The notes below the pieces were generated by a model. That model saw only the letters and a list, made by a program, of their open reading frames with translations, did no database searches and had not been told where the DNA came from. From NCBI RefSeq assembly GCF_009830285.1, contig NZ_WUQX01000001.1, positions 2,480,501 through 2,544,500 of the forward strand: DNA of 64,000 bases. The letters are read 5' to 3'. The position numbers and the translations under genes were made by a program. Shown here one piece after another: positions 22,054 through 40,684 of this stretch. The first letter of the stretch is position 1; each line of letters starts with the position of its first letter. This stretch comes from Sporofaciens musculi. GTDB lineage: Bacteria > Bacillota > Clostridia > Lachnospirales > Lachnospiraceae.

Positions 22054-22268
22054 CTATCCATCCTCCTTTTGGTTTTACCGCCCTTTCGCCCAATGGCGAG
22101 ACCGGTAAAGAAATAGATTTTAGCATAAGCAAAATCGGATAGTCCAGCTAAGAAATGTCAATAGCTAAAATGAAAAATGTTAAAAAAGTTTTTCAGAAGC
22201 ATTTGATGTAAAAAGGGTAACTTTAATAAGCCCACCCATGTGGAACTATTTAAAATTCATAAGACCTG

Positions 22269-23582
22269 TTAGGCTGCGTTCCGTACCTTGTCAGGCTGCG
22301 CTGCCAGATACCGCTCACAGTGTTCCTGAGGAGTGATGATCTCAAATGGTTTATTATCCCGGAGCATGGCAAAAATGATATTGCAGATTTTATGCATGAC
22401 AGCCCCGACAGCCACGTTTTTCTTCTTGCTTTTGCATTTGTCGGTATAATAGCCGTGGATAACTGGATTTACTGGTGTTTTTGTCCCTTTATCCACCTTA
22501 AGATTATTGATAGCCACCATATGCAGGATACGCCTGGCAAGGCTAGAACCCCTCTTGGACATGTGGACTTTATCCCCATTGAACTTGCCGGATTGCTTCA
22601 CGGCAGGATCCAAGCCGAAGTAAGCATAAAGCTTCTTTGGGGAAGAAAACAGGTCAAAGGAGCCCATTTCAGCGATCAGGACGGCTGCACTGAGAAAACC
22701 GACACCACGCAGGGACTGGAGAAGGAAGATACGGTCATAAACCGGCGTCCCTTCCAGCTTATCAACAGCCTTATGCAGGTCCTCAAGTATATTGTCCAGA
22801 TGCTCCTGGTATTCCCGGTAGGTTTTGATATACAGCCGGATCCGGAGTGCACTGCTTTGAAGCGCACGTCCGAAAACAGCGGCGTCCTTTGCGGCAGCAC
22901 GTATGGCATCATATTTGGAAACGGCATATTTTTCACCGAAACGTGCGGTTTTGCGTATGGTTTCCACAAGTATGTCTTTTGGGGCGGCAAGCATGTCTGC
23001 GGCAAGGGGGTAAGCTTCCAGGAGCTTTAAGGAAGTTTGGGTAGTGACCTTGCTAAACACTTTCCGGTATGCGGGAAAGGACACTTTCAGTTCCGCCGTG
23101 AGCTTCAGTACGACAGCGGACTGCAGGTCCTTGAAGTAATAGTAGTCCCGTACCAGGTTGCGCAGGTCAATGACCTCATCATCTGGTATGATGGAAGTCT
23201 TCAGGGAAGCATCCAGGCCGACTTTGGCAGCTTTTTTTGAATCAAATTTATCATTATGCAGTTTCCTAACGTTCATATTTGTGCTATTCTTAGTGATGAT
23301 AGGATTAATGACTGAGCAGTCAAACCCCTTATCACGAAGGAAGTACAGGAGCGGGATGTGGTAGATCCCGGTGGACTCAAGGAAGCAGCGGCTTTCGAGG
23401 GAATACATCTCTTGTGCTTCCTTTATTTTTGCGACAGCTTGCTCACGGGACTGCGGATCAGAATGAATGATCTTAAAAGGTTTTCCAGAGAGAATGCCAT
23501 TGGGCAGCATGATGGACATCCAGGTGAAGTCTGCGCCGACATCAAGCCCGACTGAGAGATAAGGGATGCTTTCAAGCATCAT
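22269..23582 (-). CDS. IS110-family transposase, copy 1
   Basis: A 437-residue recombinase with an N-terminal RuvC-like DEDD domain (about 8-165: first Asp in VGLDVGAD, Glu in FLESTGIYH, then NDKFDSKKAAKVGLD) and the C-terminal Transposase_20 domain containing the likely nucleophile Ser in SKRGSSLARR. The protein is identical to the copy at 36,918. It lacks its own ribosome binding site and overlaps the stop of a seven-codon leader frame. Known IS110 enzymes use a noncoding bridge RNA to choose donor and target. Confidence 0.95.
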   Translation of the reverse strand: MMLESIPYLSVGLDVGADFTWMSIMLPNGILSGKPFKIIHSDPQSREQAVAKIKEAQEMYSLESRCFLESTGIYHIPLLYFLRDKGFDCSVINPIITKNSTNMNVRKLHNDKFDSKKAAKVGLDASLKTSIIPDDEVIDLRNLVRDYYYFKDLQSAVVLKLTAELKVSFPAYRKVFSKVTTQTSLKLLEAYPLAADMLAAPKDILVETIRKTARFGEKYAVSKYDAIRAAAKDAAVFGRALQSSALRIRLYIKTYREYQEHLDNILEDLHKAVDKLEGTPVYDRIFLLQSLRGVGFLSAAVLIAEMGSFDLFSSPKKLYAYFGLDPAVKQSGKFNGDKVHMSKRGSSLARRILHMVAINNLKVDKGTKTPVNPVIHGYYTDKCKSKKKNVAVGAVMHKICNIIFAMLRDNKPFEIITPQEHCERYLAAQPDKVRNAA

Positions 23583-23659
23583 AAGTACTTTTGGTATTTC
23601 ATGGTTTTATCCTTTCAGGCAGGTATCCATTTCCAGAGGGCGGATACACAACCTAGCGG

Positions 23660-23845
23660 TTTATACAGGTATAGCCTGGGGCTTCCCAACCAGCCAAAAC
23701 ATAAATCACCACCGAATGGACTGACAGACTTTCTAAGAGGTTTCACCAGCCGGAAGGCCAGTTCCCAAGGAGGCGTCGTCAATGATCCTGCCTCCAGTGA
23801 TTATACCTCTATGTTTTGTCTGGTGCATTAAGGAAACCTCAGACA
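23660..23845 (-). ncRNA. Candidate bridge RNA of IS110 copy 1
   Basis: The noncoding stretch upstream of the transposase, identical to 36,655-36,840 in copy 2. It can fold into a 5' stem-loop (TGTCTG with CAGACA) followed by further stems. IS110-group elements are known to encode a structured RNA of roughly this size between left end and transposase. Exact ends are not defined by what I can see. Confidence 0.45.
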
Positions 23846-24015
23846 GGGTAAATAATGTTGCCTTATAACTTCTGATGGAAGGGGAACTCCTCCTTCTGTT
23901 ATATCTATATAGATTTATTAGATTGGACTTTGTAACTATTAACCAGTGGTCATTCTTGACTACACCATTATTATACTAGGAGGTATATAATTATTTTATC
24001 TACTGACCTCCCACA

Positions 24016-26321: not shown

Positions 26322-26342
26322 TCTTTCAACTTTTTTTGTCTA

Positions 26343-26443: not shown

Positions 26444-26482
26444 TCAGATTTCCTCCAGTCTTGAAATTTGGTTGAATGGCTT

Positions 26483-26901: not shown

Positions 26902-26947
26902 AAAAAGAGCGTGCTGCAATCCACATCTATAGTGAAACGCAGCACGC
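26902..26947 (-). terminator. Rho-independent terminator of the acetyltransferase operon
   Basis: GCGTGCTGC pairs with GCAGCACGC (nine perfect pairs, 26909-26947) and is followed on the minus strand by TCTTTTT. It lies 122 bases after the DUF1349 gene stop and closes the cluster that begins at the MATE gene. The rest of 26,668-27,068 shows no gene I can support. Confidence 0.85.
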
Positions 26948-27068
26948 CCTCCAACATATGTGTCACACTTCTTTTTCCGTTTTAATATATAATGAGCCGC
27001 CAGTAACATCTCCGAAAGTAAGAATGATCCACCAGAACCTTTACCAGTCCTAACTATGGACACTCCCA

Positions 27069-27656: not shown

Positions 27657-27667
27657 ATGAACCTCCT

Positions 27668-28270: not shown

Positions 28271-28284
28271 TATGCGCCTCCCAA

Positions 28285-28875
28285 TCAATGCCTGATCTTG
28301 TATTTTTCCCTGTCCTCATCCGTTATTCTGCGGATTACCCTGCACGGATTACCTGCCGCAACCACTCCATCCGGAATATCCCTGTTTACCACGCTTCCCG
28401 CCCCAATAACCGCATTATTTCCAATGGTCACACCAGGAAGCACTGTCACGCCCGCCCCAATCCAGACATTATCGCCAATCGTGATCGGATAAGCATATTC
28501 CAGCCCCTGGTTCCTCTGTTCAATATCCAGAGGATGGCCGGCAGTATGGAAACCACAGTTTGGAGCCACAAATACATTATCCCCAAATGTTACCTTTGCA
28601 CCATCCAGAATCACGCACCCATGATTGGCATAGAAATTCTCGCCAACTTCAATATTATAGCCAAAGTCGCACCAGAATGGGGCATTGATGGTAAATTGCT
28701 TCCCGGTTTTCCCAAGTATAGCTTCCATTGCCGTATGCCGTTCTTCCTCATGGGATGGCAGTATCTGATTGTATCGGAAGCACTTATCCTTACATTCCAG
28801 CAGTTCTTTCCCAATCTCCGGGTTATAATTTGCGTCATACAGCTCTCCCCGTGATCTCTTCTCTTTCTCTGTCAT
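28285..28875 (-). CDS. Maltose/galactoside-type O-acetyltransferase 2
   Basis: A 196-residue LacA/Maa-type enzyme: Mac domain MTEKEKRSRGELYDANY, hexapeptide-repeat beta-helix, catalytic His in HTAGHPLD and C-terminal AGNPCRVIRRITDED. It follows the ROK regulator gene immediately (start abuts that gene's stop), so the two are probably translated together. Trimeric cytoplasmic acetyltransferase by family knowledge. Confidence 0.92.
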   Translation of the reverse strand: MTEKEKRSRGELYDANYNPEIGKELLECKDKCFRYNQILPSHEEERHTAMEAILGKTGKQFTINAPFWCDFGYNIEVGENFYANHGCVILDGAKVTFGDNVFVAPNCGFHTAGHPLDIEQRNQGLEYAYPITIGDNVWIGAGVTVLPGVTIGNNAVIGAGSVVNRDIPDGVVAAGNPCRVIRRITDEDREKYKIRH

Positions 28876-29865
28876 TTATAAAACTCCTTTCTGGTCAAGG
28901 GCTTTCTGGTACATACCCTCCTGGTAATATAAATCAATATCATCCGTATAACAGAAATCCGGCATATATTCTTTTGGAATCCATTTTAAGCAGCCCAAAT
29001 AAACCTGTTCTGCCTTTTCCTCATCTAACAGATCCCCCGCTAAAAGAATGCTGGAAGGATTTACTGCCACAATTAAAGAAGTCACTGCCTTTACGATGAT
29101 CGGCAGTGCCGTTTCCGGGGATAACAGCCTTAATTCCTCTTTCCTGTCAAATTCATAAGGAAGAAAGCCGACCATGCCCGCAAACTGGTTATTTCCTTTC
29201 AGAACCGTTCCATGATAAACGCTGGCCGTCCCCGGCAAAACATTTGCCGGAAAAAAGCAGAGGGTAACAATGTCATCCTCCCTCCCCTCCTTTTTATAAT
29301 ACCCGTAGGCTTTATAATGGATATCATTCTCCATATGGACCGGAAGCCCAAATCTCTGCTCCAAAAGCTGAACCAGCGGTACCTCCTCCATCTCTGCTAT
29401 ATCACAGTGACGGACAATTCCATTTTCCGCTATGCTTGGCGTGCCCACTAAAATCATTGCGGCATTCATATGCTTTTTCAATGCCTTTTCAATCATTCCT
29501 TCAATAGCCATATAATCCAGATGCCGGAAATCCCTTTCATAATGCCCTAAAATATTCCCCAGTGGGGAAGTAACAGCCACCCTGACAGTCTTAACTCCTG
29601 CAATCATCTGGTAACTAACACAGATATAGCTCTCAAATCCTTCATTGTATTGGTAAATAACAGAAGCGCGTCCAACACCGTTAATCTGCGACTTCTCACC
29701 TAAAACCTCACCATTTTTTTCCAATTCATTCAAAAGGGTATTACAAGTAGCAACACTTAAGCCTGTTCTCTTAGAAATTTCCAGTTTTGTAAGCTGTTTT
29801 CCCCGCCACAAAAGACGGCGGATCAAATCCATATTCTGCCTTTTTACGCCGGCAGAATCCATCAT
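28876..29865 (-). CDS. ROK-family transcriptional regulator
   Basis: A 329-residue regulator with an N-terminal helix-turn-helix (about 10-60: KLEISKRTGLSVATCNTLL) and a ROK domain. The ROK sugar-site remnant ENDIHYKAYG and the glycine-rich GTASVYHGTVLKGN block are present, but the zinc-binding CxCGxxGC motif is missing and the phosphate loop is degenerate, so it should sense rather than phosphorylate a sugar. GGGGAGG precedes the ATG. A/T-rich inverted and direct repeats lie just upstream and are the likely operator. Confidence 0.85.
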   Translation of the reverse strand: MMDSAGVKRQNMDLIRRLLWRGKQLTKLEISKRTGLSVATCNTLLNELEKNGEVLGEKSQINGVGRASVIYQYNEGFESYICVSYQMIAGVKTVRVAVTSPLGNILGHYERDFRHLDYMAIEGMIEKALKKHMNAAMILVGTPSIAENGIVRHCDIAEMEEVPLVQLLEQRFGLPVHMENDIHYKAYGYYKKEGREDDIVTLCFFPANVLPGTASVYHGTVLKGNNQFAGMVGFLPYEFDRKEELRLLSPETALPIIVKAVTSLIVAVNPSSILLAGDLLDEEKAEQVYLGCLKWIPKEYMPDFCYTDDIDLYYQEGMYQKALDQKGVL

Positions 29866-29883
29866 AAATATCGCCTCCCCACA

Positions 29884-29916
29884 TTATTATAATATTTATT
29901 ATAATAATTATAATAA
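29884..29916. promoter_or_regulatory. Candidate ROK operator and promoter region
   Basis: TTATTATAA (29884-29892) and its inverse TTATAATAA (29899-29907) are separated by six bases, and TTATAATAA is repeated directly at 29908-29916. Several TATAAT-like hexamers overlap. It lies 18 bases before the ROK start, so autoregulation is plausible. Confidence 0.45.
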
Positions 29917-29922
29917 TTGCCG

Positions 29923-30561
29923 TCAAGCATTTTCTATTAACCCATTCTGTCTGGAAGCCACATCATTTTGATATCCTTCTAACTCTTTCCTCCAAAAAAT
30001 AATATCGTCTTCCGTAATTTCCCTTATCACTTTACACGGAACCCCTGCCGCTATGACGTGGTTGGGAATATCCTTTGTTACCACTGACCCAGAGCCGATT
30101 ACAACATCATCCCCTATCGTTACGCCCGGATTAATAGCGACATTTCCCCCAATCCAGACACTGTCACCAATTTTAACCGCCCTTGCATATTCCAGTTCCA
30201 GATTTCTCACTTCAACGGAAAGCGGATGCCCCGCCGTATAAATGCTGACATGCGGTCCAAGAAATACATCATCTCCAAAAATCACTGCATTTTCATCCAG
30301 AATCGTCAGTCCTGTATTCGCATAAAAATGTTTTCCAAAATAAATCTTATCCCCATGATCACAATAAAATGGAGGCGTAAGGACCATATCTTCTCCAGCC
30401 TCTGCAAAATGCCCTTTCAATTCATCTAATGCACTTCTGTCACTCCAAAAATCAGATTCATTAAATTTTTTGCAGGCGGCCCTTATTTCCGCCCACGGGT
30501 TATCAGAAATCATATACGGATTATATAGCTTCCCTGAAATCATACGTTCCCTTTCTGTCAT
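29923..30561 (-). CDS. Maltose/galactoside-type O-acetyltransferase 3
   Basis: A 212-residue Mac-domain plus hexapeptide acetyltransferase: MTERERMISGKLYNPY at the N-terminus, catalytic His in YTAGHPLSVE, WIGGNVAINPGVTIG coils and GVPCKVIREITEDD. Its C-terminal tail (about 18 residues, WRKELEGYQNDVASRQ) is longer than in its neighbours. The ROK gene with its own operator follows downstream, so this may be the end of an upstream sub-operon. Confidence 0.92.
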   Translation of the reverse strand: MTERERMISGKLYNPYMISDNPWAEIRAACKKFNESDFWSDRSALDELKGHFAEAGEDMVLTPPFYCDHGDKIYFGKHFYANTGLTILDENAVIFGDDVFLGPHVSIYTAGHPLSVEVRNLELEYARAVKIGDSVWIGGNVAINPGVTIGDDVVIGSGSVVTKDIPNHVIAAGVPCKVIREITEDDIIFWRKELEGYQNDVASRQNGLIENA

Positions 30562-30634
30562 ATTCCCTCCCTGAACAAAAACTGCCAGTCTGCCGTCAGT
30601 CTTCCATCTGTTTCATCCATTTCCCAAAACCAAT

Positions 30635-31465
30635 TTATAATCCGTGAAATATCGGCTGCTGTTTTTCATAGGTGCAGAAATACTGAAATCCCAGCTCTTT
30701 CAGCAGATGTCCGGCCTCCTTGATATAAGCCCCTAAATGTTCCGCCTTGTGGCTGTCACTGCCAATCGTGATGATTTCGCCTCCCAGCTCCCGGTACAGC
30801 TTTAATATATTTACAGACGGTGTTGTATTTTTCAGCCCATACCGGTGGTATGATGTATTGAACTCTATTCCCCCGCCATCCGAAATCACGGTCCGCAGTA
30901 TCTCTGAAATAACCGGTTTTACTTTTTCAAACGGATATTCGCCTTTCTCATCATACCGTGCAATAAGATCCATATGCCCTAACACACTGTAATCCCGATA
31001 TTTCCTTATGACGTTCAGCATTTCCTCATAATATTTCCCATTATATTCCTTCTGGCTTTTCCCTCTCTGAAAATCCTGTGTCCAAAATTCCTGGTCATCC
31101 ACCTGATGAACAGACAGAATCACAAAATCAAAAGGATATTTGTGAAACAGTGCCCTGTATAACGGAATGGTATGTACCTGCATACCAAACTCAATTCCAA
31201 TCTTTATCCGAATTTTCTCCCTGTATTTTTCCTGCAATTCTTTAATCCTGGCAATATATACCGGATAATCCACATTGGCAAGCGGTTCCTCTCCCCGATA
31301 CAATATTGGCTTCCCACAGTCCCAATCCTGCTTAACGCCATAATCCACATGGTCTGTAAAACAGATCTCATCCATTCCCCCGGCTATGGCATCCCTGACA
31401 ACCTGCTCCATCGGATATACCGAATCGTCGCTAAATTCTGTATGTACATGATAATCTGCAAACAT
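30635..31465 (-). CDS. PHP-family phosphatase (histidinol-phosphatase HisJ-like)
   Basis: A 276-residue PHP-domain hydrolase with the expected metal ligands: DYHVHTEFSDD, FTDHVDYG, IGIEFGMQ, LSVHQVDD, LGHMDLIARY and GSDSHKAEHLG. Family members dephosphorylate histidinol phosphate, but no other histidine gene is near. In this cluster a sugar-phosphate or related small phosphate is an equally reasonable substrate (inference). Confidence 0.85.
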   Translation of the reverse strand: MFADYHVHTEFSDDSVYPMEQVVRDAIAGGMDEICFTDHVDYGVKQDWDCGKPILYRGEEPLANVDYPVYIARIKELQEKYREKIRIKIGIEFGMQVHTIPLYRALFHKYPFDFVILSVHQVDDQEFWTQDFQRGKSQKEYNGKYYEEMLNVIRKYRDYSVLGHMDLIARYDEKGEYPFEKVKPVISEILRTVISDGGGIEFNTSYHRYGLKNTTPSVNILKLYRELGGEIITIGSDSHKAEHLGAYIKEAGHLLKELGFQYFCTYEKQQPIFHGL

Positions 31466-31484
31466 ATCCTTCCGCCCTTTCAGT

Positions 31485-32120
31485 CTAAAATTCCATCCGC
31501 TCCAGGATATCCTGCCATGCCTCCCCGTCTATCTCCTCGTCACGGAAAAGTTTCCGTCTGTCCTTTTCCGTAATCTTCCGGATAACCCTGCATGGATTGC
31601 CTGCCGCGATACACCAGTCCGGGATGTCTCTTGTCACCACGCTGCCGGCACCGATCACCACGTTATCCCCTATGTGTACACCGGGGCATACCACCGTGTT
31701 TCCCCCGAACCATACGTTATCCCCTACCGTCACTTCCCTGCCATATTCATATGCCGAATTGCGGCTGACCGGATGGATCGGATGCCCCGCCGTGTAGATC
31801 GCCACATTGGGAGCCATCTGGCAGTTATCGCCTATCTTGATTTTTGCCACGTCTAAAAGCGTACAGTTATAATTTGCAAAAAAATTCTTTCCCACTTCGA
31901 TGTGCTTCCCATAATCGCAGTAGAACGGCGGGTTCACAAAAGCGTCCTCAGATTTCCCGAAAAGTTCCTTCAATGTCTCCTTGATTCCCGCAAAATCCGA
32001 ACGGTCCATAAAATTCAGTTTCTGTAAAATTTTCCTGCATACAAGCTGTTCCTCAAAAATCGTATCATCTGAAATATACGCCATGCCTGCATCCCGGCGC
32101 TGTCTGTTCGTCATGTCCAT
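31485..32120 (-). CDS. Maltose/galactoside-type O-acetyltransferase 4
   Basis: A 211-residue LacA/Maa-type enzyme. The Mac domain starts MDMTNRQRRDAGMAY, the catalytic His is in YTAGHPIHPVSR, and the beta-helix ends in AGNPCRVIRKITEKD. Start set to the ATG at 32120 with GGGAGG 10 bases upstream; a TTG two codons earlier is not needed. It lies 20 bases after paralogue 5 and 19 before the PHP gene. Confidence 0.92.
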   Translation of the reverse strand: MDMTNRQRRDAGMAYISDDTIFEEQLVCRKILQKLNFMDRSDFAGIKETLKELFGKSEDAFVNPPFYCDYGKHIEVGKNFFANYNCTLLDVAKIKIGDNCQMAPNVAIYTAGHPIHPVSRNSAYEYGREVTVGDNVWFGGNTVVCPGVHIGDNVVIGAGSVVTRDIPDWCIAAGNPCRVIRKITEKDRRKLFRDEEIDGEAWQDILERMEF

Positions 32121-32140
32121 TTTCAATCATCCTCCCTGCA

Positions 32141-32746
32141 TTACTTCTCCGGCTGGTTGTCGAACCGCCTGTCTTTAAAATAATATTCCTCGTCATGCTC
32201 ATTGATTTCTCTGTATACCTTACAGGGACTACCGAATGCTATCACATTTGCCGGTATATCCTTTGTCACGACTGACCCCGCCCCGATTACAGAATTTTCC
32301 CCGATTGTAACCCCCGGCAGGACAACCACGTTTGCACCGATCCACACATTATCGCCAATCGTGACAGGGAAGGAATACATACCATCTGCCCGGTGCTTCG
32401 GATGAACGGGATGCCCTGTTGTACACAACGTCACATTAGGACCAATCAGGACATTTTTCCCTATTGTAATTTTCCAGTCATCAATCAAGGTCAGGTTCAT
32501 GTTTGCATAAGTGCCGTCCCCAATCGAAACATATTTACCAACCGCAGCCGTAAGCGGCGGCACAATCCAGACATTTTTCCCGACCTCTCCAAACAGTTTA
32601 GGAAGGAGGGCAGCCCGTCCGTCCATGTCCTCCGGCGGTAATGCGTTGAACTGCTGCACAAGTTTTTTTGCGTGTGCCTGCAGTGCCATATTCTCCTCGT
32701 CATCACCCCATAAATAGCCGTTCTTCATTTTTTCCTGTTCTGTCAT
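32141..32746 (-). CDS. Maltose/galactoside-type O-acetyltransferase 5
   Basis: A 201-residue Mac-domain acetyltransferase starting MTEQEKMKNGYLWGDD at the ATG at 32746 with GGAGG upstream; the frame is open to 32830 but that part is not family sequence. Catalytic His in CTTGHPVHPKHRAD, then WIGANVVVLPGVTIG and a C-terminus lacking the long tails of paralogues 3 and 4. It is the first acetyltransferase after the MATE exporter gene. Confidence 0.92.
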   Translation of the reverse strand: MTEQEKMKNGYLWGDDEENMALQAHAKKLVQQFNALPPEDMDGRAALLPKLFGEVGKNVWIVPPLTAAVGKYVSIGDGTYANMNLTLIDDWKITIGKNVLIGPNVTLCTTGHPVHPKHRADGMYSFPVTIGDNVWIGANVVVLPGVTIGENSVIGAGSVVTKDIPANVIAFGSPCKVYREINEHDEEYYFKDRRFDNQPEK

Positions 32747-32813
32747 TTTCTTTATCCTCCGTTTTCGCTGTTTTATATTACCACAATTCCAATCTGTATC
32801 CTTTTTTAAATTT

Positions 32814-34175
32814 TCATTCCGCCCCATCATACACCGTAAGGTCTTTGACCCATTTATATTTTTTATAATGACGGTACACTGCCGGAAGCTTTACGATCTC
32901 ATCCAGATTGACAATAAAATATACAGCCAGCACTGGAAGTTTCAGCATAAATGCCGTCAGAAATCCAAGCGGCACGGTGATACACCACATGGTCACTGTA
33001 TCACATAGAAAACCGAATCTGGAATCCCCTCCTGCACAAAAAATACCTGCAATTGTCGTCCCGTTCACGGAATTTCCCACCATGTAGCAGGAACACATGA
33101 CAAGCATCCATTTGAGATATGCATTTGCAGTAACACTTAAATCCGTTACCGTGAGTATCAGAGGACTTAAGGCAAGCAACACGATTCCTGATGCTACACC
33201 GCACAGGACAGACAATCTGCACAGCCTGCCTCCATATTCTTTTGCCTTATCCAGCCTGCCAGCGCCCAGTTCATTGCCAACCATGATCCCTCCGCCGCTC
33301 CCAAGTCCCAGGCAGAAGCAGGCAACAAGGTTTTTCACAATATTGGCAATCGAATTGGCCGCGACGGCGTCCGACCCAAGATGCCCCATGATAACGGAAT
33401 ACATGGTAAAGCCCACGCCCCAGACAATCTCGTTGCCAAGAACGGGAGAAGAATATTTCCAATAATCGTGCCGCAATCGTTTGTCATTGTGCATGATGTG
33501 GCATACCCTCAGCTTAGCGCTGTCTTTTTTTACGGTTTCAAAAATACACCACGCCACCTCTATCACTCTGGCAATCACCGTGGCCAGCGCCGCACCCGCA
33601 ATTCCCATTTGGGGTAATCCGAACCAGCCAAAGATAAGGATTGCGTTCAATATGATATTGACCACCACACTTACAGAACTGATCACGCTGGATTTTGCCG
33701 CTTTGCCCGTGTTCTTCAATATGCAGAGATACACCTGTGAGATACCTGTCAGCAAGAACGCCAGGGAGACCGTCCGCAGGTAAACCCTGCCGCCTTCAAT
33801 CAGTGGCAGCTCGTTGGTAAATACACGCATTAAAGATCCCGGAACGCACATTCCCGCAAGGAAAAACAAAAACGAAACAGCTGCGGTAACTTTCATGACA
33901 TAGGCAAAAATCCGTTCAACGGCCACTTTATCTCCCTTGCCCCAATACTGGGCAGCGAACATGGAAAGCCCTATCGTCATGGCCATGAGAAATAAATTTT
34001 CAACAAATGTAACCTGGCCTGCAAGGGATACCGCCGACAGGGAATCCTGCGTCAGCATACCGAGCATAAGTGCGTCAGACGCACTGACCAGCGCCAGCAT
34101 GAACTGCTGGAAAGCAATGGGAAACACAAGCGTCAACAGCTTTTTTGTAAAATCATACGATTTTTTCTCTTTCAT
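32814..34175 (-). CDS. MATE-family efflux transporter
   Basis: A 453-residue membrane protein with about twelve hydrophobic segments in two MatE repeats (N-terminal LLTLVFPIAFQQFMLAL, second half after about residue 235). It carries the usual signs of ion-coupled multidrug or metabolite export (MGIAGAALATVIARV). It heads the acetyltransferase cluster and is divergent from an AraC regulator. In this setting it may export the acetylated products (inference). Confidence 0.9.
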   Translation of the reverse strand: MKEKKSYDFTKKLLTLVFPIAFQQFMLALVSASDALMLGMLTQDSLSAVSLAGQVTFVENLFLMAMTIGLSMFAAQYWGKGDKVAVERIFAYVMKVTAAVSFLFFLAGMCVPGSLMRVFTNELPLIEGGRVYLRTVSLAFLLTGISQVYLCILKNTGKAAKSSVISSVSVVVNIILNAILIFGWFGLPQMGIAGAALATVIARVIEVAWCIFETVKKDSAKLRVCHIMHNDKRLRHDYWKYSSPVLGNEIVWGVGFTMYSVIMGHLGSDAVAANSIANIVKNLVACFCLGLGSGGGIMVGNELGAGRLDKAKEYGGRLCRLSVLCGVASGIVLLALSPLILTVTDLSVTANAYLKWMLVMCSCYMVGNSVNGTTIAGIFCAGGDSRFGFLCDTVTMWCITVPLGFLTAFMLKLPVLAVYFIVNLDEIVKLPAVYRHYKKYKWVKDLTVYDGAE

Positions 34176-34208
34176 CTTTCCATCCGCCTGATATTTTTTT
34201 ATTCATGA

Positions 34209-34241
34209 CAATAGAAGACTCGCGAATCGAGGATTCTATTG
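34209..34241. promoter_or_regulatory. Imperfect palindrome between MATE and AraC genes
   Basis: CAATAGAA and TTCTATTG enclose CTCG-CGAAT-CGAG, giving a 33-base near-symmetrical element directly upstream of the AraC-gene promoter. It is placed to act as operator for one or both divergent genes. Confidence 0.5.
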
Positions 34242-34242
34242 T

Positions 34243-34271
34243 TTGACAATATCAGGTTTTTGCATTAAAAT
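34243..34271 (+). promoter_or_regulatory. SigA-type promoter of the AraC-family regulator
   Basis: A perfect TTGACA (34243-34248), 17 bases, then TAAAAT (34266-34271), about 50 bases before the AraC-gene ATG. Confidence 0.7.
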
Positions 34272-34324
34272 CATCCAGTATCCTCTATTTTTATATAACA
34301 ATCTTCCATTTATGAGGTGATTTT

Positions 34325-35227
34325 ATGGATAACAACACAAAATACTGCTCCGTGTTCAATTCGGATTCTTCTGAAACGGTTGCATATAATAACCCTCTGT
34401 TCCCCGCCTATGTGGTATATGGACTCCTTTCCTCCTATCCGGACTATTCTTCCGTCAGTCACTGGCACAAGGATCTGGAGTTTATTCTGATAAAAAGGGG
34501 AACTATGACCTATAATGTAAACGGCCGGCTGATTGAACTGGAGGAAGGCAGCGGGATCATGGTAAACAGCTATCAGCTCCATTATGGCTTTTCTGCAGAA
34601 CATAACGAATGTGAATTTGTCTGCATCCTGCTCTCCCCGGAATTATTGCAGGTGAACGATTGGTTTTATCAGAACTATATTGAGGCTGTCACTGAAAATT
34701 CAGCATATCCTTACCTGTATCTTAGCCGTAATGGCTGGATGTCATCCGTTATGGAAAAGCTGGATGAGATTTATGATTCTTTTGGCAAAGTCCCCGCAGA
34801 ACCGCTATCCTATTTTGAATTGATGGAAGATTATTTTATGCTCATGAAAATATTGTATGAAAATCTTGATATTGGAAGCCAGACCCGGAAACCGGAATCT
34901 ACCGACCTGTCTTCCCTCAGAAGCATGATGACCTACATAGAGGAACACTACATGGAACACATCACTCTGGCAGATATTGCCCTGTCCGGCGCCTGCTGTA
35001 AAAGTAAATGTTCCCTGCTCTTTAAAAAGTATCTGCGCGATACTCCTATCACTTATACCACGAAGCTCAGGCTGCGGAAAAGCCTTTCCACGCTGCTTGA
35101 CTCAAACAGCAGCATCGCTGACATAGCCTATGAATACGGTTTTAGCGGGGCAAGCTATTACTGCGAAACTTTCAAGAAATATTATGGAATGCCACCACTG
35201 ATATACAAAAAAAATCAGCCTGCTTGA
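34325..35227 (+). CDS. AraC-family transcriptional regulator with cupin sensor domain
   Basis: A 300-residue protein. The N-terminal half is a cupin-type sensor (HWHKDLEFILIKRGTMTY, then VNSYQLHYGF). The C-terminal about 100 residues form two AraC helix-turn-helix motifs (ITLADIALSGACCKSKCS and IADIAYEYGFSGASYYCE, ending GMPPLIYKK). It is divergently transcribed from the MATE-acetyltransferase cluster and is the most likely activator of it. Ligand unknown; such cupin domains often bind sugars. Confidence 0.88.
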   Translation: MDNNTKYCSVFNSDSSETVAYNNPLFPAYVVYGLLSSYPDYSSVSHWHKDLEFILIKRGTMTYNVNGRLIELEEGSGIMVNSYQLHYGFSAEHNECEFVCILLSPELLQVNDWFYQNYIEAVTENSAYPYLYLSRNGWMSSVMEKLDEIYDSFGKVPAEPLSYFELMEDYFMLMKILYENLDIGSQTRKPESTDLSSLRSMMTYIEEHYMEHITLADIALSGACCKSKCSLLFKKYLRDTPITYTTKLRLRKSLSTLLDSNSSIADIAYEYGFSGASYYCETFKKYYGMPPLIYKKNQPA

Positions 35228-35282
35228 CCTTTGTGTTGTGATATTTTCATACGCCTGCGGATATTTTTCCGATAGATGCCTA

Positions 35283-35312
35283 AAATTCCTATCGTTAAAA
35301 TTTGCACCCAAA
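35283..35312 (+). repeat. 30-base direct repeat, left copy
   Basis: Thirty bases from AAATTCCTATCGTTAAAATT through TTGCACCCAAA, identical to 38,476-38,505 in the same orientation. A shorter relative (CTATCGTTA...TTGCACCCAAA) lies at 24,214-24,237. The two identical copies bracket the Fic remnant and IS110 copy 2. Confidence 0.75.
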
Positions 35313-35352
35313 CTCACGCTTGGGTGCATTGTATCAAATTGTGGTACGCAAG

Positions 35353-35432
35353 CCATATTGCATGTCCAGATTGATACAATTTTTGCGTGGGTGCAATCTA
35401 TTTTTACATTTACTGCAAATACCCTAAAATCA
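35353..35432 (+). repeat. Dispersed repeat, copy B
   Basis: Matches copy A at 24,016-24,094. Here the flanks also carry inverted TTGCACCCA/TGGGTGCAA and ATTGTATCAA/TTGATACAAT segments, so the stretch 35,301-35,398 could fold into a long imperfect hairpin. No gene is supported between 35,228 and 35,594. Confidence 0.6.
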
Positions 35433-35446
35433 CAATGTCATTAATT

Positions 35447-35509
35447 TAAGAAAAAGAACAATGCCGGATATCATTACACCGCTATATAGGGTAAAGATAT
35501 TCGGCATTG
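35447..35509 (-). terminator. Terminator downstream of the Fic/transposase remnant
   Basis: CAATGCCG-ATATC pairs with GATATTCGGCATTG over 14 bases with one mismatch (35459-35472 with 35496-35509), followed on the minus strand by TTCTTTTTCTT. Confidence 0.7.
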
Positions 35510-35594
35510 CTTTGGATATGATATCCTCATAGCTATGTCATTTTACTGTATTTATCACATAGTTCTTCCACGCATCCCGTAATTCCACTATTGT

Positions 35595-35870
35595 TTAGTA
35601 AGCTCTTTTATGCGTGTTTGAATATTTTCCCGCAAGCTGCCCTTTTGTCCGATGGTAATGACGGTCTGGCCTTACGGGAACAAGATTTTTACGGATGTCT
35701 TCATAGATCTGCTGGAACAGCCTGTCCTGTTTCTGCCTGTCCGTTTCCAGTAATATATAGATGAGGTCATTTTTCAGTATCCCTATGCTCAATGTCCGGT
35801 TGACCATCATTTTATGTTTCCGGTGGCTCTCTTTTTCATCCAGTTCCGCCTGGTAATAACATGCTCCGCA
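35595..35870 (-). pseudogene. C-terminal remnant of a DDE transposase
   Basis: Reading from about 35,870 the frame gives AELDEKESHRKHKMMVNRTL and later IYEDIRKNLVPVRPDRHYHR, ending with a basic tail. This resembles, from memory, the C-terminal end of IS4-like transposases, including an E-x-x-x-x-K/R pattern. It is out of frame with, and joined to, the truncated Fic gene. Weak family assignment. Confidence 0.4.
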
Positions 35871-36484
35871 CTATTTCTATAAACCCCCAGCAACTGTTCC
35901 ATCTTAGGCTGGATCAGATATGGCTGTACCGGTTCATGTTTCGCACCCATAATCCTGACGGGAATTCTTCTGTAAACCCCACGATCCTCCCGTTTATCCG
36001 CCAATACAAGATAATGAACCTGCTTGATGATACTTTCCGATAAAGGCATCTGCTCTTTTACTAAATCCCGCACAAAATCAAATGCCTCTTTATGCCCGAC
36101 TGCCTCCATATGCTCTTTTAACGGCTTCCTGTCGATCGTCAGACCACGTAAAACCATATCCGTCTCACGCAGAGTCAGAGTATTTCCCTCAATCGCATTG
36201 GAATTATAGGTGTACTCAACAATAAACTCCTCTGTCAGACGTTCCAATTCTCCTTCTGTCAGTGGACGTCTGTTATCCAGTTCTCTTTTCTTCCTTTCTA
36301 TAGCCGTCAGTAAACTTTCTGTTGCTTTAAACCGCCCATCTTCTGGTTTTCTTGCATCTACTGGAATCATCCAACTACGCCCTTCACGGGTGACACCAAA
36401 AACTTTTCCTTCTGCGCATAATATGCGCACACGCCTGTCAGAAATCCCCCATTTCTCTGCAGCCTGTTTTACTGTCATATACAT
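35807..36484 (-). pseudogene. Fic-family protein, truncated before the catalytic motif
   Basis: About 225 residues. The N-terminus is a small helix-turn-helix (VKQAAEKWGISDRRVRIL), followed by the Fic N-terminal region with the inhibitory motif in YNSNAIEGNTL and helices up to GVYRNSAEH. The catalytic HPFxxGNGR loop that should follow is missing: the frame runs into unrelated sequence near 35,880 and stops at the joint with the transposase remnant. It should have no AMP-transferase activity. IS110 copy 2 begins 36 bases upstream of its start. Confidence 0.75.
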
Positions 36485-36654
36485 AAATAATAACCCTCAC
36501 TTCCCAAAACATTATACCCCCTAGTATAATAATGGTGTAGTCAAGAATGACCACTGGTTAATAGTTACAAAGTCCAATCTAATAAATCTATATAGATATA
36601 ACAGAAGGAGGAGTTCCCCCTCCATCAGAAGTTATAAGGCAACATTATTTACCC

Positions 36655-36840
36655 TGTCTGAGGTTTCCTTAATGCACCAGACAAAACATAGAGGTATAAT
36701 CACTGGAGGCAGGATCATTGACGACGCCTCCTTGGGAACTGGCCTTCCGGCTGGTGAAACCTCTTAGAAAGTCTGTCAGTCCATTCGGTGGTGATTTATG
36801 TTTTGGCTGGTTGGGAAGCCCCAGGCTATACCTGTATAAA
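36655..36840 (+). ncRNA. Candidate bridge RNA of IS110 copy 2
   Basis: Structured noncoding region upstream of the transposase. Visible pairings: TGTCTG (36655-36660) with CAGACA (36678-36683); AGAGGT (36690-36695) with ACCTCT about 65 bases later; GGAGGC with GCCTCC across a 15-base loop; CTGGCC with GGCTGG. GAGGTATA at 36691-36698 is the exact complement of the target bases left of the CT core at copy 1. The order (5' stem-loop, then loops) resembles the known IS110 bridge-RNA plan. Ends and promoter are not resolved. Confidence 0.45.
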
Positions 36841-36917
36841 CCGCTAGGTTGTGTATCCGCCCTCTGGAAATGGATACCTGCCTGAAAGGATAAAACCATG
36901 AAATACCAAAAGTACTT

Positions 36918-38231
36918 ATGATGCTTGAAAGCATCCCTTATCTCTCAGTCGGGCTTGATGTCGGCGCAGACTTCACCTGGATGTCCATCATGCTGCCCAA
37001 TGGCATTCTCTCTGGAAAACCTTTTAAGATCATTCATTCTGATCCGCAGTCCCGTGAGCAAGCTGTCGCAAAAATAAAGGAAGCACAAGAGATGTATTCC
37101 CTCGAAAGCCGCTGCTTCCTTGAGTCCACCGGGATCTACCACATCCCGCTCCTGTACTTCCTTCGTGATAAGGGGTTTGACTGCTCAGTCATTAATCCTA
37201 TCATCACTAAGAATAGCACAAATATGAACGTTAGGAAACTGCATAATGATAAATTTGATTCAAAAAAAGCTGCCAAAGTCGGCCTGGATGCTTCCCTGAA
37301 GACTTCCATCATACCAGATGATGAGGTCATTGACCTGCGCAACCTGGTACGGGACTACTATTACTTCAAGGACCTGCAGTCCGCTGTCGTACTGAAGCTC
37401 ACGGCGGAACTGAAAGTGTCCTTTCCCGCATACCGGAAAGTGTTTAGCAAGGTCACTACCCAAACTTCCTTAAAGCTCCTGGAAGCTTACCCCCTTGCCG
37501 CAGACATGCTTGCCGCCCCAAAAGACATACTTGTGGAAACCATACGCAAAACCGCACGTTTCGGTGAAAAATATGCCGTTTCCAAATATGATGCCATACG
37601 TGCTGCCGCAAAGGACGCCGCTGTTTTCGGACGTGCGCTTCAAAGCAGTGCACTCCGGATCCGGCTGTATATCAAAACCTACCGGGAATACCAGGAGCAT
37701 CTGGACAATATACTTGAGGACCTGCATAAGGCTGTTGATAAGCTGGAAGGGACGCCGGTTTATGACCGTATCTTCCTTCTCCAGTCCCTGCGTGGTGTCG
37801 GTTTTCTCAGTGCAGCCGTCCTGATCGCTGAAATGGGCTCCTTTGACCTGTTTTCTTCCCCAAAGAAGCTTTATGCTTACTTCGGCTTGGATCCTGCCGT
37901 GAAGCAATCCGGCAAGTTCAATGGGGATAAAGTCCACATGTCCAAGAGGGGTTCTAGCCTTGCCAGGCGTATCCTGCATATGGTGGCTATCAATAATCTT
38001 AAGGTGGATAAAGGGACAAAAACACCAGTAAATCCAGTTATCCACGGCTATTATACCGACAAATGCAAAAGCAAGAAGAAAAACGTGGCTGTCGGGGCTG
38101 TCATGCATAAAATCTGCAATATCATTTTTGCCATGCTCCGGGATAATAAACCATTTGAGATCATCACTCCTCAGGAACACTGTGAGCGGTATCTGGCAGC
38201 GCAGCCTGACAAGGTACGGAACGCAGCCTAA
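36918..38231 (+). CDS. IS110-family transposase, copy 2
   Basis: Identical 437-residue protein to that at 22,269. RuvC-like DEDD N-terminus and Transposase_20 C-terminus with KRGSS. Directly upstream is a seven-codon frame (ATG at 36898, MKYQKYL) with AAAGGA before it, whose TGA overlaps the transposase ATG; the transposase itself has no good ribosome binding site, so its translation is probably coupled to the mini-ORF. Confidence 0.95.
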   Translation: MMLESIPYLSVGLDVGADFTWMSIMLPNGILSGKPFKIIHSDPQSREQAVAKIKEAQEMYSLESRCFLESTGIYHIPLLYFLRDKGFDCSVINPIITKNSTNMNVRKLHNDKFDSKKAAKVGLDASLKTSIIPDDEVIDLRNLVRDYYYFKDLQSAVVLKLTAELKVSFPAYRKVFSKVTTQTSLKLLEAYPLAADMLAAPKDILVETIRKTARFGEKYAVSKYDAIRAAAKDAAVFGRALQSSALRIRLYIKTYREYQEHLDNILEDLHKAVDKLEGTPVYDRIFLLQSLRGVGFLSAAVLIAEMGSFDLFSSPKKLYAYFGLDPAVKQSGKFNGDKVHMSKRGSSLARRILHMVAINNLKVDKGTKTPVNPVIHGYYTDKCKSKKKNVAVGAVMHKICNIIFAMLRDNKPFEIITPQEHCERYLAAQPDKVRNAA

Positions 38232-38475
38232 CAGGTCTTATGAATTTTAAATAGTTCCACATGGGTGGGCTTATTAAAGTTACCCTTTTTACATCAAATG
38301 CTTCTGAAAAACTTTTTAACATTTTTCATTTTAGCTATTGACATTTCTTAGCTGGACTTTTCGGAATATTATCAATTATAAAGGAATAATATTTCTCGCT
38401 GTTCGGAACAAAAAATGCAGAAATGCAATTTATGCTTTCCGAATCTTGATTTTGACTTCTTGAGAAATATAATAG

Positions 38476-38505
38476 AAATTCCTATCGTTAAAATTTGCAC
38501 CCAAA
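38476..38505 (+). repeat. 30-base direct repeat, right copy
   Basis: Identical to 35,283-35,312. It lies between the right end of IS110 copy 2 and the broken 3' end of the group II intron. The rest of 38,359-38,512 is AT-rich and shows no gene. Confidence 0.75.
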
Positions 38506-39109
38506 TAGCCATTTATCGGTTTCCTTCAATAAATACCCTGTCAACTACTGTCGGTACTCCCAGTTTCCGAAATTCTCCTTTGGTTTCTTTGGGTATCTCT
38601 ACCCTACGGACTGGATTGGGTTTGTATTTCCCATCCTTTGACTGCTGGATTAGTTTCCTTTGGGTATCTCTGAGGAACAGCAGAAGTTCATCCACGCTCA
38701 TCCCATCCATACCTCCTCCCCCTTTGTTCGACTTTACTTTCTTATATGCATTGTTCAGATTAGCCGGTTGTAAAATCTTCTCCAACAGTCTGTCCGTCTG
38801 AAAGTCTGTGATGATGTGGTTATTTTCAGCAATCCTCTGGCAGGCGGGCACTTCTGCATACTCTTTCGATTCCGTCGATACCATTTGCAGATCGCCCTCA
38901 CTATGAAGTTGTCTGTCCTTAAATCTGTCATTGGTTACATTCATTTACTTACATCAGACCAGAGATTTGCCGCCACTTTCCTTCAGATTCCCCTCGCGTT
39001 AATCATAATCCTTGTTAAATAGGTCACCCTTGGTCTTGGCTGTATCCTTCCCACTACCAAGGCGGATTAGGGACTTTCACCCATTAGAAACGTGCGCCGC
39101 AAGGCACAC
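38506..39109 (-). mobile_element. Truncated group II intron (probably class C)
   Basis: The 5' end is recognisable at 39,109: GTGTGCC pairs with GGCGCAC to form the first hairpin, followed by GTGAAAGTCCC-type domain I sequence and the start of the intron-encoded protein. Everything after about 140 codons of the reverse transcriptase is missing. The intron starts a few bases after a Rho-independent terminator stem, which is the preferred insertion site of class C introns. Confidence 0.75.
38513..38944 (-). pseudogene. Group II intron reverse transcriptase/maturase, N-terminal fragment
   Basis: 143 codons with the LtrA-type N-terminus: LNNAYKKVKSNKGGGGMDGM, KPNPVRRVEIPKETKGEFR and KLGVPTVVDRV. 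The YADD active-site domain, maturase X domain and beyond are absent. The last residues (FIEGNR) do not fit the family and mark the breakpoint. Confidence 0.88.
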
Positions 39110-39114
39110 CATAT

Positions 39115-39147
39115 AAAAAAGCTGCCAGTATTTTTTTTACCAACAGC
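39115..39147 (-). terminator. Terminator of the cysE-sigH operon
   Basis: GCTGTTGGTA pairs with TACTGGCAGC (ten pairs including G-T wobbles) over a seven-base A loop, followed on the minus strand by six T. The group II intron remnant begins five bases later. Confidence 0.8.
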
Positions 39148-39155
39148 CTCCCTTT

Positions 39156-39257
39156 TTATCCTTCTTTCCGTTTTTTCAAAATCTTCTGAATCTTGGCATC
39201 ATCTCCCCACGCAATCTTACTATCATAGGGTCTGTCAGGAAATTTTCCATAGTCCAA
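39156..39257 (-). other. Possible small ORF downstream of sigH
   Basis: A 33-codon frame (TTG start at 39257, weak ribosome binding site) encoding LDYGKFPDRPYDSKIAWGDD followed by a lysine-rich tail. It is in the same frame as sigH, directly after the sigH stop and before the operon terminator. It may be a small protein, a readthrough extension or remnant. I do not recognise it. Confidence 0.25.
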
Positions 39258-39275
39258 ATTAATTTTATCTACCGT

Positions 39276-39881
39276 TTATTTCTCTGCCCTTAATATTTTC
39301 TCCGTTTTCCCCTTAATCCTCTGAAGCGCGTTGTCAATGGTCTTTGGGCTCTTGTCCAGCAAACGTGCAATCGTCCGATAGTCCGTCCCCAAAAGATGGA
39401 GATAAAGCACCCGATTCTCCAGGTCACTTAAGCTTTCCTCCAATTTCATCTCAAGTAATTGGGCATATTCTCGGCTGACCAGCAGTTCTTCTGGATTGCT
39501 CTCCTGCCCTGCCGCCATTGTCTCCATCAAGGAACCTTGCTCCTCGCTTGACTCATAGAGAGATATGTAGGAATTCAAAGGGCTGTGCTTTTTGCGTTTG
39601 GACGCCTCGATTGCCGAATACATCTGCCTGGTAATGCAAAGCTTCGCAAAACTGTAAAAGGAAGTCTCCTGCTGAGTATCATAATCCTGCACAGCCTTAA
39701 AAAGACCAATCATGCCCTCCTGAATTAAGTCGTCATTCTCTCCCCCAAGCAGGTACATGGCGTTTGCCTCCTTGCGCACCAGATTCTTATATTTCTCCAT
39801 AATATAGTCAATGATGTGGCTGTCGCCTCCCCGCAGCTTTCCAATCAACTGCTCGTCCGTCATCTGCTCATAGTTCGCCAT
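39276..39881 (-). CDS. sigH: RNA polymerase sigma-H factor (sporulation)
   Basis: A 201-residue sigma-70 family factor of the SigH type: region 2 with NLVRKEANAMYLLGGENDDL and FYSFAKLCITRQM, region 4 with LENRVLYLHLLGTDYRTIAR and SPKTIDNALQRIKGK. In spore formers SigH transcribes spo0A and early sporulation genes. It is the last gene of the cysE-cysS-mrnC-rlmB string, the same place as in Bacillus; the intervening yacP-like gene is missing. Confidence 0.93.
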   Translation of the reverse strand: MANYEQMTDEQLIGKLRGGDSHIIDYIMEKYKNLVRKEANAMYLLGGENDDLIQEGMIGLFKAVQDYDTQQETSFYSFAKLCITRQMYSAIEASKRKKHSPLNSYISLYESSEEQGSLMETMAAGQESNPEELLVSREYAQLLEMKLEESLSDLENRVLYLHLLGTDYRTIARLLDKSPKTIDNALQRIKGKTEKILRAEK

Positions 39882-39937
39882 ACATATCTCCGTTCTTAAT
39901 CATGAACATTTTTCATATTAATATTCAGGCTCATCCC

Positions 39938-40684
39938 TTATGCCATCAGCCTCTGACGCACCACCTCGTAGGCCAAAACACCTGCTGCCACAGACGCATT
40001 GAGAGAATCAATATCCCCCTTCATGGGGATGGAGGCAGTCAAATCGCAGTTCTCCTTCACAAGCCTGCTCACGCCCTCCCCCTCGCTTCCGATGACAAGT
40101 CCAATCGGTCCTGTCAGGTTCAGACGGTACATCTGCTCGCCGCCCATATCCGCGCATACGAACCACAGGCCCTCTTTCTTAAGCTCCTCCATGGTTCTGG
40201 TCAGGTTGGTAACCTTTGCCACAGGCGTATAGTTAAGAGCGCCTGCCGAAGTCCTCGCCACCGTGGCCGTAAGCCCCACCGCCCGTCTCTTTGGAATGAT
40301 GACGCCATGGACCCCCGCCTGGTTCGCGGTACGGATAATCGCGCCCAGATTGTGAGGGTCCTCGATATTATCCAAAAGAATCAGGAAAGGGTCCTCCCCC
40401 TTCTCTCTGGCAAGAGCCAGCATGTCCTCCACCTCTGCGTAGGCGTAGGCCGCCATATATGCAACCACACCCTGGTGCTTTCCCGTCTCAGAAATCTGTG
40501 TCAGGCGTTCCTTAGACACAAACTGCACCAAGGTATCCTGCTTCTTTGCCTCTCTTAAAATGGTTCTCACTGGCCCATCCTGGCATCCGTCCAGCACCAT
40601 AAGCTTATCAATGGTTTTTCCTGACCGGAACGCCTCCAACACGGCATTGCGGCCCTCAATCAGATTCTCGTTTTCGTTTCTCAT
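39938..40684 (-). CDS. rlmB: 23S rRNA (guanosine-2'-O-)-methyltransferase RlmB
   Basis: SpoU/TrmH family enzyme of about 248 residues with an N-terminal substrate-binding domain (LIEGRNAVLEAF) and the knotted SPOUT domain: LLDNIEDPHNLGAIIRTAN, VIGSEGEGVSRL and SLNASVAAGVLAYE. I set the start at the ATG at 40684, where the family sequence begins; an upstream in-frame ATG is possible and would overlap mrnC. Confidence 0.93.
   Translation of the reverse strand: MRNENENLIEGRNAVLEAFRSGKTIDKLMVLDGCQDGPVRTILREAKKQDTLVQFVSKERLTQISETGKHQGVVAYMAAYAYAEVEDMLALAREKGEDPFLILLDNIEDPHNLGAIIRTANQAGVHGVIIPKRRAVGLTATVARTSAGALNYTPVAKVTNLTRTMEELKKEGLWFVCADMGGEQMYRLNLTGPIGLVIGSEGEGVSRLVKENCDLTASIPMKGDIDSLNASVAAGVLAYEVVRQRLMA

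What the first reader, a model, noticed from the sequence alone, without database searches (positions are those of the whole stretch)
36655..36840. Candidate bridge RNA with a target-complementary 8-mer
Seen: the 398-base noncoding left end folds into several stems (TGTCTG/CAGACA; GGAGGC/GCCTCC; CTGGCC/GGCTGG). Just after the first stem-loop lies GAGGTATA (36691-36698), the exact complement of TATACCTC next to copy 1 and a 7/8 match at copy 2. A second, same-strand near-match TATACCTG lies at 36827-36834, so the guide is not unique; a given 8-mer in 400 bases is expected in about 0.6 percent of cases, before allowing for choice of offset and strand. GAGGT may also take part in a stem. This element would be a new programmable recombinase if confirmed.
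Basis: partly seen in the sequence, partly recalled or inferred. Interest (0 to 1): 0.6.

Follow-up and report, generated by a model that had tools for sequence, protein, structure and literature searches.

The report
Bridge RNA that seeks ribosome-binding sites
The left end of this mobile element carries an ordinary IS110-type bridge RNA, but the guide is not the one first proposed: the likely guide resembles the ribosome's anti-Shine-Dalgarno sequence and steers the element into the start signals of genes.

Summary
The region is the noncoding left end of an IS110-family insertion sequence (36521-38358; second copy 22141-23979; seven copies in the genome). Scanning 315 windows of the left end against 97 natural insertion sites puts the left target guide at 36723-36732 (GACGCCTC+CT, z 8.0) and the right target guide at 36762-36771 (z 7.4). 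Right-donor guide, a handshake base, a two-loop fold with compensatory changes, the CT core, a clean empty site and a promoter across the joined ends match IS621. The guide looks like the anti-Shine-Dalgarno sequence: 66 of 97 sites read AGGAGG and 76 of 97 lie just before a gene start (random positions 13%); neither window copy does. Relatives from several clostridial orders share this; more distant ones seem to have other targets with matching guides. It is a member of a known kind; the Shine-Dalgarno guide is the interesting part, with the IS900 target motif as partial precedent. No RNA or recombination was measured.

The parts
36521..38358 (+). IS110-family element, 1838 bp including both CT core copies
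   Evidence: ends read from the copies of this genome, right ends of relatives, natural empty site of another copy
22141..23979 (-). second copy in the window, inverted, 1839 bp
36513..36520 (+). left target of this copy, TATACCCC
36521..36524 (+). core CT plus first right-donor bases (CTAG)
36525..36530 (+). TATAAT, -10 half of the promoter formed when the element's ends join
   Evidence: TTGACN-17-TAYDRT in 74 of 79 elements with both ends, perfect consensus in 49 of 79; the left-end search pattern already favoured such a -10, the -35 half was not in any pattern
36691..36700 (+).
   Evidence: TAT and last T invariant in 54 of 54 groups, no target covariation; TAGACA 17 bp upstream in 14 of 54, poor -35 in the window's own group
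36720..36777 (+). target-binding loop: closing stem GAC/GTC (36720-36722 with 36775-36777), inner stems GGG/CCT (36734-36736 with 36760-36762) and CTGGC/GCTGG (36739-36743 with 36750-36754)
   Evidence: consensus fold and pair counts on 54 sequences
36723..36732 (+). left target guide GACGCCTC plus core CT (anti-Shine-Dalgarno-like)
   Evidence: best of 315 windows, z 8.0, at 36725-36730; permutation p 1e-4
36762..36771 (+). right target guide TCTTAGAAAG, last two bases pair with the core
   Evidence: best of 316 windows, z 7.4, at 36765-36769; permutation p 1e-4, signal at the first three bases and weakly the fifth
36772..36772 (+). handshake base after the right target guide
   Evidence: left-donor A with T in 32 of 32 groups; left-donor T with A in 7 of 10 and with C in 3 of 10
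36779..36875 (+). donor-binding loop, closed by GTCCAT/ATGGAT
   Evidence: consensus fold, 96.9% of cells paired but mostly invariant pairs
36803..36810 (+). left donor guide TTGGCTGG, 7 of 8 to TTAGCTGG of the right end
   Evidence: sequence; GCTGG was part of the anchor used to find relatives, so its constancy is no test; L160-L162 have GTTGG in both RNA and right end, by eye
36844..36848 (+). right donor guide CTAG plus possible handshake G
   Evidence: left end CTAG with guide CTAG 72, CTTG with CAAG 22, exceptions 3, of 97; the G was required by the search pattern, so its fit to target C is not a test
36918..38231 (+). IS110 recombinase, DEDD (D14, E69, D111, D114) and S331-G332 conserved
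38338..38358 (+). right end: TTGACA (-35 half), left donor TTAGCTGG at 38348-38355, A, core CT at 38357-38358

Best explanation
The left end encodes an IS110-group bridge RNA with the IS621 layout. After excision the joined right and left ends form a sigma-70-type promoter (TTGACA-17-TATAAT) that transcribes the left end (inferred from sequence); an internal -10 box at 36695 may also start the RNA (inferred, weak). [quoted passage not shown] The donor-binding loop pairs with the joined ends (right side supported by covariation, left side inferred). The recombinase cuts at the CT core and exchanges strands as in IS621 (inferred from homology and a clean empty site). Because the left target guide reads like the anti-Shine-Dalgarno of 16S rRNA, the element enters Shine-Dalgarno sequences in antisense to the gene and leaves the AGGAGG in place.
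For: IS110 family: Pfam PF01548 and PF02371, NCBIfam NF033542 180.8 bits against cut-off 140, IS621 chain 8wt6 E 1.7e-12, DEDD and SG residues invariant in 7 of 7 aligned proteins. Guide-target covariation: left guide 5.41 of 8 matches against 4.31 (sd 0.17) with guides permuted among 31 guide groups, 97 sites; right guide 3.71 of 8 against 2.58 (sd 0.18), 27 groups, 77 sites; 0 of 10,000 permutations reached either. Unbiased window scan puts both maxima at these places. Right donor guide: CTAG/CTAG 72, CTTG/CAAG 22, exceptions 3, of 97. Handshake base after the right target guide, 39 of 42 groups complementary. Fold: 31 pairs, 97.7% of cells paired, 175 cells changed on both sides against 52 in shuffles. 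Junction promoter 74 of 79. Empty site with a single CT for the copy before a topoisomerase III-like gene. Gene starts: 76 of 97 sites; controls 772 of 5820, 17 of 73, 7 of 77; AGGAGG sites 54 of 66 against 18 of 75 in the window.
Against: No RNA or recombination was measured. Related elements share guides by descent; the permutations work on guide or left-end groups but not on a tree. Left-guide positions -8, -7 and -3 carry no signal (-3 hardly varies); right-guide positions +4 and +6 to +8 carry none. Some guides fit poorly, e.g. TCTTCTC with aaacctc and ttcacct, AATTCTC with caacctc. The window copies are poor cases: at 36521 the target ATACCCC matches the guide at 4 of 7, homologous empty sites read TATACCAC, and both window copies fail the 50-codon gene-start test, though 5 of the 7 copies in the genome pass. 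21 of 97 sites fail it. Several donor-loop pairs never vary, partly because the anchor GCTGGTTG was used to find the sequences. Enrichment at true gene starts may come partly from loss of harmful insertions elsewhere.
Confidence: 0.9

Rival explanations
1. [quoted passage not shown]
For: 8/8 complement at one window copy and 7/8 at the other.
Against: z 0.9 in the covariation scan, neighbours at most 2.0; TAT and final T constant while targets vary; outside the consensus fold; other strand than the IS621 left guide; TATA is not shared by the targets of the seven copies.
Confidence: 0.02
2. The left end acts as DNA and the guide matches arise because the element preserves target-like sequence; no RNA is involved.
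For: No transcript has been seen; guide sequence resembles the target.
Against: Compensatory changes that keep base pairs (15 of 31 pairs), opposite senses of the left and right guides, and right-donor and handshake covariation fit a folded RNA and the solved IS621 mechanism.
Confidence: 0.04
3. The bridge RNA is real, but Shine-Dalgarno insertion reflects selection (insertions inside coding sequence are lost) more than guide choice.
For: AGGAGG insertion sites lie at gene starts more often (54 of 66) than AGGAGG in the window (18 of 75), more than the hexamer alone predicts.
Against: 66 of 97 insertions fall at one exact register of AGGAGG and variant guides tend to have variant targets; selection alone does not predict that.
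Confidence: 0.1

Closest known systems
IS621 and other IS110-group elements with bridge RNA (PMC11208160, PMC11208158; passages read)
   Same: DEDD-Tnp recombinase, CT core, long left end carrying the RNA, target loop then donor loop, left guide to bottom strand and right guide to top strand, handshake base, promoter across joined ends
   Different: Target is the Shine-Dalgarno sequence of genes, not REP elements; longer recombinase (437 residues against 328 in chain 8wt6) and longer left end (397 against 191 bases); no conserved 5' stem-loop in the consensus fold
IS900 of Mycobacterium avium subsp. paratuberculosis (PMC8141618; passages)
   Same: IS110 family; reported target motif CATGNNNNNNTCTCCTT, which reads in reverse as a Shine-Dalgarno sequence followed by a start codon (my reading; older statements linking it to ribosome-binding sites are recalled, not seen)
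   Different: Motif includes the start codon; host is not a clostridium; I did not compare its sequence or look for its RNA
seekRNA elements of the IS1111 and IS110 groups (PMC11187229; abstract start, passages)
   Same: RNA-guided target choice by IS110-type transposases
   Different: IS1111 group has the RNA at the other end and subterminal inverted repeats; in that paper the one mention of a ribosome binding site concerns cargo

Membership tests
IS110 family | DEDD RuvC-like domain plus Tnp domain with catalytic serine | tested here: met
IS110 family | insertion without target duplication beyond the core, no terminal inverted repeats | tested here: met
   single CT in the empty site of one copy; ends differ. 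Absence of inverted repeats was judged by eye
IS110 group (IS621-like) | left end longer than right end, RNA in the left end | tested here: met
   397 against 127 noncoding bases; fold and guides in the left end
IS110 group (IS621-like) | promoter formed across the joined ends | tested here: met
   74 of 79 by sequence, with the -10 side partly favoured by the search pattern; activity not testable
IS110 bridge RNA | target loop with left and right guides to opposite strands | tested here: met
IS110 bridge RNA | donor loop with left and right guides to the element's own joined ends | tested here: inconclusive
   right guide met by covariation; left guide matches 7 of 8 but was fixed by the search anchor, with support by eye from three distant elements
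IS110 bridge RNA | transcribed RNA bound by the recombinase and directing recombination | not testable with these tools
   needs RNA sequencing and a recombination assay
IS1111 group | RNA in a long right end | tested here: not met
   right end is the short one and the guides lie in the left end
IS1111 group | subterminal inverted repeats of 7-17 bp | not tested
   not searched for

The most novel reading that the evidence does not exclude
A clade of IS110 elements spread over several clostridial orders has settled on a universal signal instead of a particular site: its bridge RNA carries an imitation of the ribosome's anti-Shine-Dalgarno sequence, so the element can enter the ribosome-binding site of very many genes in very many hosts, antisense and without destroying the AGGAGG. 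Guide variants (CCTC, TCTC, ACTC, CCAC) have drifted together with their targets, giving a natural series of retargeted bridge RNAs.
Probability: 0.8. Interest if true: 0.55.

Novelty: new member of a known kind. Interest (0 to 1): 0.42.

Why it matters
It corrects the guide that anyone would test at the bench, and gives a set of natural guide-target pairs well away from IS621. If the Shine-Dalgarno reading holds, it explains how one RNA-guided element can spread over distant hosts with very many landing sites, offers a route to insertion at gene starts, and suggests comparing the reported IS900 motif with that element's own noncoding sequence.

Tried and rejected
GAGGTATA as guide: rejected. 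GGAGGC/GCCTCC and TGTCTG/CAGACA as conserved stems: not in the consensus fold. Pairing of GAGGT with ACCTC near 36759-36763: considered by eye; the consensus instead pairs CCT (36760-36762) with GGG. Rfam search of 36000-40000: no bridge-RNA family, only a sub-threshold group II intron match. Outward promoter from the left end toward the target gene: a 9-of-12 match on the minus strand (36553-36526); the scan gave 7 promoter-like sites against 4.0 (sd 1.8) in shuffles, so left open. Terminator-like hairpin on the minus strand at 36604-36623 (7 terminator-like sites against 2.3, sd 1.7): speaks against simple read-through from the target gene's own promoter. Literature: ten searches of the held open-access library listed no paper that, by title or abstract start, describes a Shine-Dalgarno-directed bridge RNA; 'shine' and 'ribosome' do not occur in PMC11208160. 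Passages were also seen of PMC3196728, PMC7823733 and PMC8450116, none of which reports such targeting there. Subscription papers and preprints are missing. The right-donor pattern picked a wrong CCAG in 33 rows; repeated with the last match. In one search the places dropped before counting were 14 without a recognised left end (L118 among those absent from the 97), 17 without a donor-guide motif, 3 with short flanks and 21 duplicates; places lacking the anchor GCTGGTTG never entered. In one search three of 97 had no readable right guide and 18 of 97 no readable right flank. Structure prediction and covariance-model tools were not used.

Full report
What is there. The window holds two copies of one IS110-family element, at 36521-38358 (+) and 22141-23979 (-); the genome has seven, one cut short at its right end. 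The gene at 36918-38231 encodes a 437-residue recombinase matching PF01548 and PF02371, NF033542 'IS110 family RNA-guided transposase' at 180.8 bits and the solved IS621 transposase 8wt6 at E 1.7e-12. D14, E69, D111, D114, S331 and G332 are invariant in 7 of 7 aligned proteins.

Ends. Complete copies share everything from CTAGTATAATAATGG on the left to TTAGCTGGACT on the right. Right ends of the form TTGAC-...-TAGCTGG[AT]CT are seen in distant relatives. For another copy of the same genome, before a gene reading (M)KLVIAEKYSVA (topoisomerase III-like, recalled), a related genome has the uninterrupted site with a single CT at the join. With the ends joined, TTGACN-17-TAYDRT occurs in 74 of 79 elements with both ends, and the perfect TTGACA-17-TATAAT in 49 of 79. 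The pattern used to find left ends already favoured such a -10; the -35 half was in no pattern.

Relatives. Loci came from genome contigs (79 loci), viral contigs (2 loci; 11, of which 10 new), genus, family, order and class genomes and plasmids. From these, 97 distinct insertion sites with a readable left end and donor-guide motif were kept, in 54 left-end groups at 97% identity. They include Lachnospiraceae, Alkaliphilus (L075) and Peptoclostridium (L123, L129); a Thermoanaerobacterium element (L124) with target ttaattcctc and guide AAATTCCTC was read but fell outside the later table. Dropped rows are listed under Tried and rejected.

The guides. In an unbiased scan, every window of the left-end alignment was compared with each element's own target, in both senses, against permutations among groups. 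For the left target the best of 315 windows is 36725-36730 in the same sense as the top strand, so that the RNA pairs with the bottom strand: z 8.0; the next is 4.0. For the right target (43 groups) the best of 316 windows is 36765-36769 in antisense: z 7.4; the next is 3.4. Left target in antisense peaks at z 4.0 at 36854-36859; GAGGTATA gives z 0.9 and its neighbours at most 2.0. With guides read from fixed anchors, the left guide matches 5.41 of 8 against 4.31 (sd 0.17) and the right guide 3.71 of 8 against 2.58 (sd 0.18); 0 of 10,000 permutations reached either. Telling pairs are guide TCGTCTC with target tcgtctc, TCGCCAC with ataccac, TATTCTC with tattctc twice, and four elements with guide ATCACTC whose targets all end in ACTC; against these stand TCTTCTC with aaacctc and ttcacct, ACGTCTC with tcacctc, and AATTCTC with caacctc. 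The strands agree with the IS621 rule (PMC11208158, passages).

Donor side. Left ends starting CTAG have the RNA word CTAG (72), those starting CTTG have CAAG (22); three of 97 depart. The base after the right target guide is T in 32 of 32 groups with left-donor A, and A in 7, C in 3, of 10 groups with left-donor T; this fits the handshake guides described for IS621. The right-end pattern allowed only A or T at that left-donor position, but the RNA base was free. The G after the right donor guide, opposite target C in 94 of 97, was required by the search pattern and is no test. The left donor guide TTGGCTGG fits TTAGCTGG at 7 of 8; GCTGG was part of the anchor, so its constancy is no test either. 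Outside the anchor, L160-L162 carry GTTGG both in the RNA and at the right end (by eye), which supports it.

Fold. On 54 sequences the consensus has 31 pairs: a target loop closed at 36720-36722/36775-36777 with an inner stem-loop between the guides, and a donor loop closed at 36779-36784/36870-36875. 97.7% of cells are paired, 175 cells change on both sides against a shuffled mean of 52, and sliding the partner by one to three columns drops pairing to 47% or less. The structure was derived from the same alignment, which favours it; the five-pair stem-loop with up to six pair types at one position is the strongest part, while several donor-loop pairs never vary or were fixed by the anchor.

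What GAGGTATA is. It precedes the target loop. T, A, T and the last T of TATNAT are identical in 54 of 54 groups. TAGACA lies 17 bases upstream in 14 of 54; in the window's own group the -35 is poor (TGCACC at 16). The mean best -35 match is 3.4 of 6 against 2.5 in shuffles. I propose a -10 box for an internal start near 36707; this is an inference and the related sequences are not independent.

Where it inserts. Read on the other strand, 66 of 97 sites are AGGAGG, and 76 of 97 have a start codon with at least 50 open codons 4-11 bases downstream, 61 of them at 7-9. Controls: 772 of 5820 random positions, 17 of 73 other AGGAGG in the left flanks, 7 of 77 right flanks read outward. AGGAGG sites carrying the element have a gene start in 54 of 66 cases, AGGAGG in the window in 18 of 75. 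So the element lands mostly in Shine-Dalgarno sequences, antisense to the gene, keeping AGGAGG. The excess over the bare hexamer may reflect selection. Exceptions matter: neither window copy passes the test (5 of the 7 copies in the genome do), and in Clostridium transplantifaecale (L036, L037) the site is not before a gene by this test, while the changed guides (TTCCCTC; right guide ending GGAAG) fit its targets (CTCCCTC; TCC).

Limits of the clade. L160-L162, 33-34% identical to L118, share the target TGTGCTTG-CT and carry TGTGCTTG-CT-GGG at the guide position in 3 of 3. Peribacillus elements at 28-29% identity to the window's protein (L195-L197) likewise seem to match other targets (ATGGCCC; TCCTGCCC). 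Both were read by eye; the Peribacillus ends are inferred from where copies diverge, and the shared bases of L160-L162 could partly belong to the element. They suggest that Shine-Dalgarno targeting belongs to one clade.

Known or new. Bridge RNAs of IS110 elements are known (PMC11208160, PMC11208158, PMC11187229; passages). The reported IS900 motif CATGNNNNNNTCTCCTT (PMC8141618, passages) reads in reverse as a Shine-Dalgarno sequence and start codon, so insertion at such places has a precedent in the family, though the passages seen do not say so. I found no paper in the held library on a bridge RNA whose guide imitates the anti-Shine-Dalgarno sequence (searches listed under Tried and rejected). 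I file it as a new member of a known kind with an unusual target.

Noticed in passing
38886-39003 (-): Rfam group II intron domain match RF02001 just below the gathering score (30.2 against 32), next to a 143-aa minus-strand ORF at 38513-38944 without a Pfam match; possibly a group II intron remnant.
   Followed up: no
36899-36918: An upstream ATG at 36899 appears to be in frame with the recombinase in relatives, but this copy has four A where copy L007 and relatives have five, so the listed ORF starts at an ATG overlapping the short frame's stop (by eye).
   Followed up: partly
L036, L037, L038 (Clostridium transplantifaecale): Relatives with changed guides sit in what looks like a repeated sequence (GGAAAGTTTTCTCCCTC-like) instead of gene starts: possible natural retargeting to a repeat.
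   Followed up: partly
L160-L162: Distant relatives share a target with an inverted repeat (AAGTG..CACTTACTGTGCTTG) and a matching guide; what the repeat is was not studied.
   Followed up: partly
36604-36623 (-): Hairpin GGAGGGGGAACTCCTCC, terminator-like on the minus strand and still able to form in relatives (by eye); may stop antisense transcripts from reaching the target gene.
   Followed up: no
36537-36554: Short inverted repeat just inside the left end (GTAGTC..GACCAC here, one mismatch; GTAGTC..GACTAC or ATAGC..GCTAT in relatives, by eye); function unknown.
   Followed up: no
23980-36520: The two inverted copies bracket 12.5 kb of chromosome; recombination between them could invert it.
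   Followed up: no
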